Shown here in pieces: positions 50,966 to 54,251 of a stretch of 64,000 nucleotides of DNA. The translations under genes and the position numbers were made by a program. The DNA comes from Clostridiales bacterium (GTDB taxonomy: Bacteria; Bacillota; Clostridia; Lachnospirales; Lachnospiraceae). The notes under the pieces were generated by a model. That model was not told the origin of the DNA, ran no database searches, and saw only the letters and a list, made by a program, of their open reading frames with translations. Positions within the stretch are counted from its first letter, which is position 1; each line of letters begins with the position of its first letter. The stretch spans positions 1-64,000 of the forward strand of contig JAJBVD010000042.1 in the NCBI GenBank assembly GCA_020859985.1, written 5' to 3'.

Positions 50966-53107
50966 CTACAGCATCCGATATCTGGCCAGACATGCCAGGA
51001 TTTCCTGCCGTCTCACGGACGCGGCAGCGCCCGCCCCGTAATTTTTCGGAGTGACAGACAGGATTCCGTCTTTCTCGATTTTCCTCGCCGCTTCCTCCGC
51101 CAGAGCGGCGGCGGTCTTTTTGCCGTCTGCCATACGGCCCAGAATATACTGCATCAGATAAGCCAGCGCAGCCGTCTGGCTTTCGTCAACGACCTGTTCC
51201 AGATAACGCAGGTCAATCTCTGTCTTGTCCAGACTTAAAGTATCCCATCCGTGGGTGCGTGCCTTTTCAATCTGTTTTGCGCGAACCGGCTTTTTCAGCC
51301 AGGCGGTACGTTGCGCTGCTGCTTCCCGGCTCTTCACTCCCATTTCAGGCAGATTTTTCGTCGAATTCTCCTGCCGCTTCACGTTCGCTGTCCCCGGCAT
51401 GGTTTCTTTGTCCGGCTGCCCGCTGACATCCTGTGCCATTCCATCACGCACGCCCTCATATTGCTGCCCACAGATCTCCTTTGCGCGTGCCGTGACATCT
51501 TTTGCCACATAGCAGTCCATCTGCAGCACGGTGTCCGCCACCGTCAGATAATCGCCGGAGCTGCCTACGACCAGAATCGTCGATACGCCAAGGTCTTCAT
51601 ACAGACTGCGAATGCTGCGGATGAACGGTTTGATCGGTTCCTTTTCATCGGAGACAAGCTGCGCCATGCGCTCATCACGCACCATAAAATTGGTCGCCGA
51701 AGTATCCTCATCGATCAAAAGCAAACGGCTGTCCGCAGCCAGTGCCTCGACCGTATTTGCCGCCTGAGACGTGCTGCCGCTTGCGTTTTCCGTAGAAAAA
51801 CGGGTCGTGTCTGCTCTGGTGGGCAGGTTACTGATAAACATGGAGATATCCGTCTCATGAATGCAGCGCCCTTCTTCTGCACGCAGCTTAAATGCGCTCT
51901 GATCCGTGATGACCAACTCCCTGCCGTCCCCGGCAATATGGTTGTAAACACCGCGTTCCAGCGCTTTCAAAAGAGTCGATTTTCCGTGAAATCCGCCGCC
52001 CGCGATCACCGTGACACCCTTTTTAATCCCCATACCGCGCACGCTTCCGCGATGCGGCAATTCCAGCGTCACAGCCAAAGATTCCGGACTTTCGAATTTT
52101 ACTGCAGCCCCGCCCTGCCCTCGCCGGGTTATGCCCCCAATCTCTGATTGTGGGGCGTGGGCATCCTCGCCCTCCGGGCGGGATATCCGCCGAGCCTGGC
52201 GAGGGGGCGTTTCCAAACTTTTCATCGGCCGCTGTGACACGCCGCTCTCCCGCGGCAGTACCGAACCGTCCGCTACAAAAGCTACAAGCCCCAGACCGTC
52301 CAGTGCGTCCCGTATGTACTGCTGATCGTCCGCCAGCTCTACGACCGCGTCAAGCTCCCGCTTCATCTGCGGATTGAAATGAAACGTTTTCTCCGCAGCT
52401 TCCGGCAGGAAATCAAACAGAATCTTCTCCAGCTCCCCTGCCGCAATCGTGCGTCCGAACGCCGGAAATCCGACCTCGATCCGCGCCTCTATTTCATTCA
52501 CGGAAATGCACATCGCAGTGCGCTCCAGAACTTCCTGCCCGGCGCGGCAGGCCGTGACGAGACCGCTTTTACCTGAGCCCCGCCCTGCGCGGCCACTATT
52601 TCCATTATAATCCCGCGCCTGCTCGTCTCTTCTGCCCCTGTCCTCTCTGTTTTCACGATTTCCTCTGTAGCCCTGACCGGATTCTGTTCTTCCACCCTGT
52701 CGCCCAAATCGTGCCGGGAAGGCTTTCACATCCTGCCGAAATGCCGGACGTGACGTCGATTCCGCACGCAGATTCCGGTGCAACCGCCGCAGCAAATAAT
52801 CCTCCACGGCGATCCGGCGGTGGCGGCTCTCAAAATACTGCGGCGCGATATTACCCCAGCCCTGCCCCGCGCGCAGCGCATTTAAATGGGCAGGGCGTTC
52901 TGCCGCCGAGCCTGACGAGGGGGCGCTTCCATGATTGTGATAAATGATCCGCACCCGCGATGGCGTCGCAAACGGATCGCCCTGTACATGGTCAATCGCG
53001 AGGCGGTAGGCGCCGAAGTCATATTCGCCCTCCAGCACCTTGTATGCCTTATATCCTTTGTGGTCTATTTCTCTTAACTGTTTTTTAAGCTCCGCCTGTG
53101 AACGCAT
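50966..53107 (-). CDS. ABC-ATPase domain protein (predicted ATPase of the ABC class) with insertions
   Basis: GGGFHGKSTLLKALERGVYNHIAGDGRE P-loop; LLIDEDTSATNFMVRDERMAQLV; family-typical N-term YDFGAYRLAIDHVQGDPFATPSRVRI. Confidence 0.85.
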   Translation of the reverse strand: MRSQAELKKQLREIDHKGYKAYKVLEGEYDFGAYRLAIDHVQGDPFATPSRVRIIYHNHGSAPSSGSAAERPAHLNALRAGQGWGNIAPQYFESRHRRIAVEDYLLRRLHRNLRAESTSRPAFRQDVKAFPARFGRQGGRTESGQGYRGNRENREDRGRRDEQARDYNGNSGRAGRGSGKSGLVTACRAGQEVLERTAMCISVNEIEARIEVGFPAFGRTIAAGELEKILFDFLPEAAEKTFHFNPQMKRELDAVVELADDQQYIRDALDGLGLVAFVADGSVLPRESGVSQRPMKSLETPPRQARRISRPEGEDAHAPQSEIGGITRRGQGGAAVKFESPESLAVTLELPHRGSVRGMGIKKGVTVIAGGGFHGKSTLLKALERGVYNHIAGDGRELVITDQSAFKLRAEEGRCIHETDISMFISNLPTRADTTRFSTENASGSTSQAANTVEALAADSRLLLIDEDTSATNFMVRDERMAQLVSDEKEPIKPFIRSIRSLYEDLGVSTILVVGSSGDYLTVADTVLQMDCYVAKDVTARAKEICGQQYEGVRDGMAQDVSGQPDKETMPGTANVKRQENSTKNLPEMGVKSREAAAQRTAWLKKPVRAKQIEKARTHGWDTLSLDKTEIDLRYLEQVVDESQTAALAYLMQYILGRMADGKKTAAALAEEAARKIEKDGILSVTPKNYGAGAAASVRRQEILACLARYRML
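52103..52216. repeat. Divergent palindromic-element copy (E) inside ABC-ATPase gene
   Basis: gcagccccgccctgccc...gggcgggatatCCGCCGAGCCTGGCGAGGGGGCGtttcc shares the right half with copies A and C. Confidence 0.65.
52851..52935. repeat. Palindromic element copy C inside ABC-ATPase gene
   Basis: GCCCTGCCCCGCGCGCAGCGCATTTAAATGGGCAGGGC...TGCCGCCGAGCCTGACGAGGGGGCGCTTCC. Confidence 0.85.
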
Positions 53108-54251
53108 CATTTTTCCCACCTGCTTCGAATCTCATCCAGCATCTCCATCACGCGGATCGTATGCGCATGCGGCATCTCCTCGCACTCTAGCTTTCCCGCC
53201 TCGATCGCACGTTTGCAGGCAAGCACTTCATATTCGTAGCCTGTGATCTGCTTTGGCTGCGGTATCGTCTCCACCAGCTCATACTCATTGTTGTAAATGC
53301 GGATTTCTTCAAAATTGTTGGTGTTTTCCACCTCTATACGGCCTTCCGTCCCAAAAATGATCCCGCGGCGGTCTGAGACTGCTTCCATCGTGTTGAACAG
53401 TCCTGCGATCGTTCCATTCGGATATACGAGATTGACAAACTCGGACTTGTCCACACCCGTCTTGTGAAGCACCATCGAAGTCGAAAGACCCTGAATGTCG
53501 TCGCCCAGCACCCAGGTCGCAAAATTCAGCGTATAAACGCCAAGGTCGAGCAGCGCCCCGCCGGCCAGGTCCGGACGTACCATACGTTCTTTATCCAAAA
53601 GAGAATAGCCCAGATTCGCGGTCAGACCAACGATCTTGCCGATGCGGCCGCCGCCCGGACGGTTTTCTCCGGCCACAACGTTTTTGTTTTTCCCGCAGCT
53701 GCCTGCAGTAACATCACCTGCCAATGTTGGTTCCCAGCAGCCCTGGCCCACGCGAAGCGTTTCTAAATGGCCAGGGCAATCTGCCGCCGACCCAAGGGAG
53801 GGGGCGCTTCCCGTGAAAGCATCTTCTCCAAACAGCAGCTCCCTTACCTTCCTTGACTGCGGGGTATAGCGTGTCCACATCGCTTCGGTAATAAAGACCT
53901 TTTTCTCATGCGCCAGCTCCAGCACTTCCCGCGCTTCCGCCGCGTTCTGCGTGAAGGCTTTTTCACACAGCACCGGTTTCCCGTGATTGATGCACAGCTT
54001 CGCGTGCTCGCAGTGATGCGAATGCGGCGTTGCGATATAGACCAGCTCCACCTGATCATCGCACAACATTTCCTCATAGCTTCCATAGGACTTATCCGCA
54101 CCGTATTTTTCGGCAAACGCCTTTGCCCGCTCACCATCGCGGGCCGCGATCGCGTACAGATTCACCTCAGTCATCCGTGATACCATACCGTTTCCGCCAT
54201 CGTTGTCGCGATTCTGCCTGCTCCTAAAATTGCAAGATTCAGTTTCTTCAT
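53107..54251 (-). pseudogene. Gfo/Idh/MocA family oxidoreductase with N-terminal frameshift and in-frame repeat insertion
   Basis: N-term MKKLNLAILGAGRIATTMAETV reads from 54251 and hits TGA; the rest continues in another frame (MTEVNLYAIAARDGERAKAFAEKYG...). A duplicated GGTAT explains the shift. Confidence 0.8.
53731..53816. repeat. Palindromic element copy D inside oxidoreductase gene
   Basis: GCCCTGGCCCACGCGAAGCGTTTCTAAATGGCCAGGGC...TGCCGCCGACCCAAGGGAGGGGGCGCTTCCC. Confidence 0.85.

What the first reader, a model, noticed from the sequence alone, without database searches (positions are those of the whole stretch)
52851..53816. Palindromic repeat element sits in frame inside two unrelated protein genes (RPE-like)
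Seen directly: the same roughly 80-bp two-hairpin element occurs inside the ABC-ATPase gene (52851-52935) and the Gfo/Idh/MocA gene (53731-53816). Both are read in the same frame and orientation, giving GSAPSSGSAAERPAHLNALRAGQGWGN and GSAPSLGSAADCPGHLETLRVGQGCWEP. In the oxidoreductase it interrupts the conserved stretch REL-L...IGKIVGLTANLGY; in the ATPase it follows the conserved SRVRI segment. An intergenic copy (46731) reads PSPGSAAGCPAHADALRAGRGYGK. Known precedent: Rickettsia palindromic elements insert in frame into ORFs. Inference: a mobile hairpin element that can persist within coding sequence because it carries an open frame.
Basis: partly seen in the sequence, partly recalled or inferred. 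Interest (0 to 1): 0.88.

Follow-up and report, generated by a model that had tools for sequence, protein, structure and literature searches.

The report
Mobile hairpin repeats inside working genes
A gut bacterium carries at least 41 copies of a short hairpin-shaped DNA repeat, most of them inserted inside ordinary and even indispensable protein genes without breaking the reading frame, which shows that a sequence family catalogued as a regulatory RNA behaves instead as a mobile element that adds about 25 amino acids to host proteins.

Summary
The element is Rfam family RF02987 (GA-cis, listed as an RNA), matched on the strand opposite to the two ORFs. The window's genome has 41 copies. They occur in 24 of 47 congeners but are nearly absent outside one family (Lachnospiraceae). 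Of 128 copies examined, 77 lie inside an ORF that continues in the same frame on both sides, and none of these carries an internal stop. Hosts include the only copies of PriA and MurD, plus MutS, MutL, RimO and a polyprenyl synthase. Congeners lack the insert at the same sites. One near-identical Gfo/Idh protein reads ...EDAFT|WEP..., exactly without the 25 residues. Units are 75/78 bp, flanked on both sides by NGGAA-like bases, with no terminal inverted repeats. A nested 39- or 69-bp module makes long forms. The 9-bp stem differs between copies but is 98.5% paired, almost without G-T wobble, which points to a DNA hairpin. Best reading: a non-autonomous, frame-compatible mobile palindrome, working like Rickettsia palindromic elements; common descent with them was not tested. 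The mobilising enzyme is unknown; IS200-type (Y1) and IS110 transposases are absent from several copy-rich genomes.

The parts
53737..53812 (-). Short GA-cis unit inside the Gfo/Idh/MocA oxidoreductase gene (ORF 53107-54186 -), encoding GSAPSLGSAADCPGHLETLRVGQGC (residues 126-150)
   Evidence: exact empty allele in P0003, long form at the same site in P0002 and G009
52857..52931 (-). Short GA-cis unit inside the ABC-class ATPase gene (ORF 50966-53119 -), encoding GSAPSSGSAAERPAHLNALRAGQGW (residues 64-88)
   Evidence: site empty in 20 congeners, net +75 bp
52104..52215 (-). Long-form unit (outer element plus nested module, second hairpin partly lost) in the same ATPase gene, encoding LETPPRQARRISRPEGEDAHAPQSEIGGITRRGQGGAA (residues 302-339)
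   Evidence: long in G010, short in G009, empty in about 20 others
46731..46805 (-). Short GA-cis unit between two permease genes, just upstream of the likely start of the second permease
46806..46841 (-). Truncated upstream copy: loop plus right arm of hairpin 2 only
53107..54186 (-). Host gene: Gfo/Idh/MocA oxidoreductase
   Evidence: PF01408, PF22725
50966..53119 (-). Host gene: ABC-class ATPase (ABC_N, ABC_ATPase, MRB1590_C)
   Evidence: PF20446, PF09818, PF21117

Best explanation
GA-cis (RF02987) is a non-autonomous mobile palindromic DNA element. The unit is NGGAA-RYGCCCCCTCG..CGGCGGCAGRTCG-hairpin-GCTN, 75 or 78 bp. It inserts at NGGAA-like targets and leaves NGGAA on both sides. Because its length is a multiple of three and one frame is nearly always open, insertion into a gene adds 25 or 26 translated residues instead of destroying it. 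Such insertions survive where the protein tolerates a floppy loop. The variable stem acts as a DNA hairpin during mobilisation or copying. In place, copies decay, form tandem arrays, and gain or lose nested 39/30-bp modules. Shown here: repetition, presence/absence polymorphism, precise in-frame insertion, open frame, stem covariation, and absence of Y1 and IS110 transposases from several copy-rich genomes. Inferred: translation in the cell, single-strand hairpin intermediate, identity of the enzyme.
For: Copies: 41 in this genome; 24/47 congeners, up to 61 copies; 22/299 of the family; outside the family only one sub-threshold hit in a class-wide sample of 394. Empty sites in congeners for ATPase, panE, MurD, MutS, polyprenyl synthase, RelA/SpoT-domain protein, thymidine kinase and others. 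Exact empty protein allele P0003. 77 of 128 copies are in one ORF frame on both flanks with no internal stop; log10 P about -7.3 for 70 unique-flank cases, given openness of the same frames in non-ORF copies. PriA and MurD with inserts are the only copies in the genome. Inserts fall between aligned blocks of the solved homologues: PriA Zn region, MutS connector domain, MurD middle domain. AlphaFold puts the Gfo/Idh insert in a segment with pLDDT about 25, in a model of mean 72. NGGAA on both sides, register correlation z=4.5. Stem covariation: 98.5% paired, 8 of 9 pairs changed on both sides, whole-structure score 0.512 versus 0.129 shuffled; 94 distinct stems with 798 Watson-Crick, 10 G-T and 38 mismatched pairs. 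Tandem 78-bp arrays.
Against: No enzyme was found, and no copy was caught moving. The flanking duplication is clear at some sites (panE, RelA/SpoT-domain, Gfo/Idh) but degraded at others, so a conserved element end cannot be fully told from a target-site duplication. All genomes in the genus are unnamed assemblies, many of them MAGs. No expression or protein data were available. The ORF host set was defined by ORF length, not by curated annotation, and fourteen copies had long open frames on both sides that did not match.
Confidence: 0.85

Rival explanations
1. GA-cis is what Rfam lists: a structured RNA (recalled as a candidate cis-regulatory RNA) that merely happens to overlap genes here.
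For: It matches the curated model. In other genera of the family the ten best copies mostly sit between genes, and several lie just upstream of a long ORF on the RNA strand, next to purine-rich ribosome-binding-site-like sequence.
Against: In this genus most copies lie inside ORFs, and in 56 of 77 of them the RNA strand is antisense to the host gene. Hosts are unrelated. Sites are present or absent between close species. G-T wobble pairs are about as rare as random mismatches (10 of 48 non-Watson-Crick pairs), unlike a stem conserved as RNA.
Confidence: 0.07
2. The element is removed before or during protein synthesis (self-splicing, ribosome bypassing, or protein splicing), so host proteins are normal.
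For: It sits in core enzymes, next to functional motifs (PriA zinc region, radical-SAM activase), and is hairpin-rich like known bypass elements (own knowledge).
Against: No internal stop in the reading frame of any of 77 coding copies, and lengths are multiples of three; neither is expected if the segment were never translated. Reverse insertions and several different frames are used, and long and short forms occur at the same site. 75-78 bp is too small for a known self-splicing intron or intein.
Confidence: 0.05
3. Inserts are old, lineage-conserved loop expansions that look alike because of composition, not insertions of one element.
For: The Gfo/Idh loop is expanded with unrelated sequence in several relatives.
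Against: Sequence similarity reaches E about 1e-15 to 1e-19 between unrelated genes, empty alleles are exact, and intergenic and tandem copies exist.
Confidence: 0.02

Closest known systems
Rickettsia palindromic elements (RPE; Ogata et al. 2000, 2002, as summarised in PMC10969869)
   Same: Many copies, palindromic, inserted in frame in unrelated genes, open in one main frame, apparently tolerated by host proteins.
   Different: Unrelated host phylum. Shorter unit (75-78 bp against about 150 bp). NGGAA flanks, nested 39/30-bp modules, stems that turn over between copies. A minority is inserted in reverse. Sequence relation not tested.
GA-cis RNA, Rfam RF02987
   Same: Same sequence and structure family by covariance model; same bacterial family.
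   Different: Listed in Rfam as an RNA gene family; here mostly inside ORFs and antisense to them, site-polymorphic, behaving as mobile DNA.
REP/BIME elements with RAYT (IS200-type Y1) transposases
   Same: Short hairpin repeats, no terminal inverted repeats.
   Different: REPs are intergenic with a GTAG/CGTC tag. Y1 transposases are absent from several copy-rich genomes here.
Bacterial MITEs (e.g. ERIC, Correia)
   Same: Non-autonomous, short, flanked by a short duplication, sometimes fused to ORFs.
   Different: No terminal inverted repeats seen; far higher share of in-frame coding insertions.
Coding palindromes in nematomorph mitochondrial genes (PMC6649704)
   Same: Perfect inverted repeats embedded in protein-coding genes.
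   Different: Organellar, longer, and not shown to be one dispersed element.

Membership tests
GA-cis RNA (RF02987) | Covariance-model match at or above the gathering score | tested here: met
   36 of 41 own-genome hits over cut-off
GA-cis RNA (RF02987) | Lies in the 5' leader of the gene it would regulate (defining feature recalled, not read) | tested here: not met
   In this genus 77 of 128 copies are inside ORFs, 56 of them antisense; in other genera most of ten copies are intergenic
Rickettsia palindromic elements | Dispersed palindromic repeat inserted in frame into unrelated ORFs | tested here: met
Rickettsia palindromic elements | Sequence homology to an RPE family / presence in Rickettsiales | not tested
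   RPE sequences were not compared; the element was found essentially only in Lachnospiraceae
Rickettsia palindromic elements | Insert translated as part of the host protein | not testable with these tools
   Open frame and no stops support it; no protein data
REP/RAYT | Y1 (IS200-like) transposase present with the repeats | tested here: not met
   PF01797 not found in G007, G009, G014, G016, G020 with 23-55 copies
IS110-mobilised element | DEDD transposase present with the repeats | tested here: not met
   PF01548 below cut-off (only very long ORFs, probably Cas9) in G009, G012, G014, G018, G021
MITE of a DDE transposon | Terminal inverted repeats | tested here: not met
   Ends NGGAARYGCCCCC and stem-GCTN are not complementary (read from alignment A2)
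MITE of a DDE transposon | Short target-site duplication | tested here: inconclusive
   NGGAA on both sides, z=4.5; exact at some sites, degraded at others

The most novel reading that the evidence does not exclude
A new class of frame-compatible hairpin transposon that needs no known transposase. It spreads as single-stranded DNA through NGGAA-directed insertion, its stem is renewed by template switching so that both arms always match, and it adds modular 13- and 25-residue segments to host proteins, steadily remodelling even essential enzymes in a free-living bacterium.
Probability: 0.2. Interest if true: 0.9.

Novelty: new variant of a known kind. Interest (0 to 1): 0.74.

Why it matters
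In-frame palindromic insertion is summarised in the literature as unusually frequent in Rickettsia (PMC10969869), an intracellular bacterium with a reduced genome. Here the same behaviour appears at tens of copies per genome in gut Lachnospiraceae with 2-5 Mb genomes, and it reaches core enzymes such as PriA, MurD, MutS and MutL. It also suggests that an Rfam RNA family is mobile DNA in this genus: the stem covaries, but almost without the wobble pairs expected of RNA. That is a warning for structure-based RNA discovery. Close relatives with and without each insert make the effect on protein function directly testable.

Tried and rejected
Single-sequence folding did not separate the element from shuffles. 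Identical copies in G038/G042 looked like recent jumps, but the identity extends beyond the element, so they are passengers in a larger repeat. The idea that the stem is copied from the target was raised by left flanks matching the right arm (L283, L300, L304, L334, L354). On inspection most of these are truncated tandem copies, and at clean empty sites (ATPase, panE, RelA/SpoT-domain) the stem does not match the target. Y1 (RAYT/IS200) and IS110 transposases were tested as drivers and rejected. A search with window 52000-54260 shows the nested module of the long form at 84-96% identity across the genus. Paper searches for GA-cis gave nothing useful; the original paper is not in the held library, so its claims are recalled, not checked.

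Full report
What is there. The window holds three full GA-cis units (46731-46805, 52857-52931, 53737-53812), one truncated unit (46806-46841) and one long-form unit (52104-52215), all on the minus strand. Two are read in the same frame inside the ABC-class ATPase and Gfo/Idh/MocA genes, as reported, and the long form lies in frame in the same ATPase gene. The Rfam model RF02987 (GA-cis) matches the three full units on the plus strand, the strand opposite to the ORFs: two above the curated cut-off and the third just below it.

Copy number and distribution. The covariance model finds 41 copies in the 3.8-Mb genome, 36 above the curated cut-off. In the genus 24 of 47 genomes have copies, up to 61 each, with copy-free genomes among them. 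In the family 22 of 299 sampled genomes have copies. In a class-wide sample of 394 only five had any, four of them in this family and one weak hit elsewhere. An exact pattern search of named species genomes returned only Lachnospiraceae/Clostridiales MAGs and Eubacterium sp. 14-2. This patchy, multi-copy pattern is that of a mobile element.

Insertion is precise and polymorphic. The ATPase site is empty in 20 congeners, the net insert being 75 bp. For Gfo/Idh, protein P0003 (97% identical) reads EDAFTWEPTLAGDV where the window reads EDAFT-GSAPSLGSAADCPGHLETLRVGQGC-WEPTLAGDV, an exact empty allele; P0002 and genome G009 carry a longer form at the same site. At the second ATPase site two species have the long form, one the short form, and the others none. 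G010 has a private copy near the ATPase start that the window lacks. Empty sites were also found for panE, MurD, MutS, polyprenyl synthase, a RelA/SpoT-domain protein, thymidine kinase, a glycosyltransferase and a pyruvate-formate-lyase-type activase.

Target. At panE the empty site is GTGTGGAAGAATACAG and the filled site GTGTGGAA-[ATGCC..GTGCTCA]-GGAAGAGTACAG. The RelA/SpoT-domain and Gfo/Idh sites likewise keep GGAA or GGGAA on both sides. Over 87 non-tandem copies the left flank is RTGGAA (GGAA 84-98% per base). The right flank has GGAA three bases after the stem. The two flanks correlate best in exactly that register (z=4.5). Tandem arrays have a 78-bp period with the same junction. The ends are not inverted repeats of each other.

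Reading frame. Of 128 copies (41 own plus 87 from named genomes), 77 have a long open frame (at least 60 codons) on both sides in the same frame, and none contains a stop in that frame. Fourteen have mismatched frames, the rest no long ORF on both sides. Given how often the same frames are open in the 51 other copies, 70 unique cases all being open has a probability of about 10 to the minus 7.3. The main frame (47 copies) reads (V/L)ETPPRxASAADR..DAENASRF..; nine copies use the GSAPS frame seen in the window; 21 are inserted in reverse. This argues for translation and against splicing or ribosome bypassing.

Hosts. Pfam and structure searches, together with reading of the sequences, identify PriA, MurD, MutS, MutL, RimO, PanE, a polyprenyl synthase, thymidine kinase, a radical-SAM activase, a LacZ-type beta-galactosidase, a GalT-type transferase, a GT2 glycosyltransferase, a response regulator (in its linker) and a ComF-like protein. 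PriA and MurD with the insert are the only copies in the genome. The insert lies between residues 457 and 460 of the solved PriA, in the zinc region; between MutS residues 136 and 143; and in a variable stretch of the MurD middle domain. AlphaFold gives the Gfo/Idh insert region (residues 125-178) a pLDDT of about 25 within a model of mean 72, that is, an unordered loop.

Structure. In 37 distinct copies the 9-bp stem of hairpin 2 is 98.5% paired, with changes on both sides in 8 of 9 pairs; the whole-structure covariation score is 0.512 against 0.129 in shuffles and at most 0.074 in slid controls. Hairpin 1 is invariant and therefore untested. Among 94 distinct stems there are 798 Watson-Crick, 10 G-T and 38 mismatched pairs. 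G-T is hardly commoner than expected among random mismatches, which fits a DNA hairpin, or arms homogenised by template switching (a described process: PMC8794818, PMC7202029, abstracts), better than selection on RNA. At orthologous sites resident copies mostly change in one arm only: 7 single changes against 4 matched ones at 2 loci, after removing one false pairing from tandem arrays. One further matched change is seen between G000 and G009. So pairing is kept mainly in the lineage that moves, not for the host.

Long forms. A module GATATCCCGCCCGAAGGGCGAGGATGCC...CCGGCGAGG, present with or without an inner hairpin ending GGGGGCAT, is nested between the outer GGCG and GGGCAG, adding 39 or about 69 bp. 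It is abundant across the genus at 84-96% identity and also occurs in tandem or outside GA-cis.

Enzyme. Y1 transposases (REP/RAYT, IS200) were not found in G007, G009, G014, G016 and G020, and IS110 transposases are below cut-off in G009, G012, G014, G018 and G021, although these genomes have 20-55 copies. The enzyme is therefore unknown, or the copies are relics of past activity.

Relation to GA-cis as a regulatory RNA. In other genera the best-scoring copies mostly sit between genes, several close upstream of a long ORF on the GA-cis strand, so the original classification is understandable. In this genus 56 of 77 coding copies have the RNA strand antisense to the host gene, which excludes a leader function there.

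Verdict. A non-autonomous, frame-compatible mobile palindrome. It works like Rickettsia palindromic elements (PMC10969869) but is found in a different phylum with a different anatomy. Translation of the inserts and the mode of movement remain to be shown experimentally.

Noticed in passing
window 48678-48811 and 55317-55346 (also L019, L020): A second palindromic intergenic repeat family (AACTGTTCAGTACCTTCACAGTTACG... with a GCCCATTTAAAATCGCTGCGCGATGGGC-type hairpin) that shares its inner hairpin style with GA-cis.
   Followed up: no
L246-L262; window 52104-52215: A nested module (39 bp, or about 69 bp with a further inner hairpin) inside GA-cis, also seen in tandem (L255, L259) and outside GA-cis (L262): repeats within repeats, in steps of three bases.
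   Followed up: partly
L018 (C31:88880), L253, C70:43886: Another nested variant, GCTCTCCGCTCCGCTTCGGTCGGCGCTAAACG..CGTCCACTGGACG..CAGCGCC, replacing or extending hairpin 1, also read in frame (ETLSAPLRSALN...).
   Followed up: no
L118-L126 (other genera): GA-cis copies lie between genes, several close upstream of a long ORF on the RNA strand; L119 could encode a short leader peptide ending at a TAAGGAGG site.
   Followed up: partly
L188-L201 (G038, G042, G039): Near-identical GA-cis copies embedded in a larger unidentified repeat, so GA-cis also travels as a passenger.
   Followed up: no
window 6149-6410: Bacterial large SRP RNA gene (plus strand).
   Followed up: no
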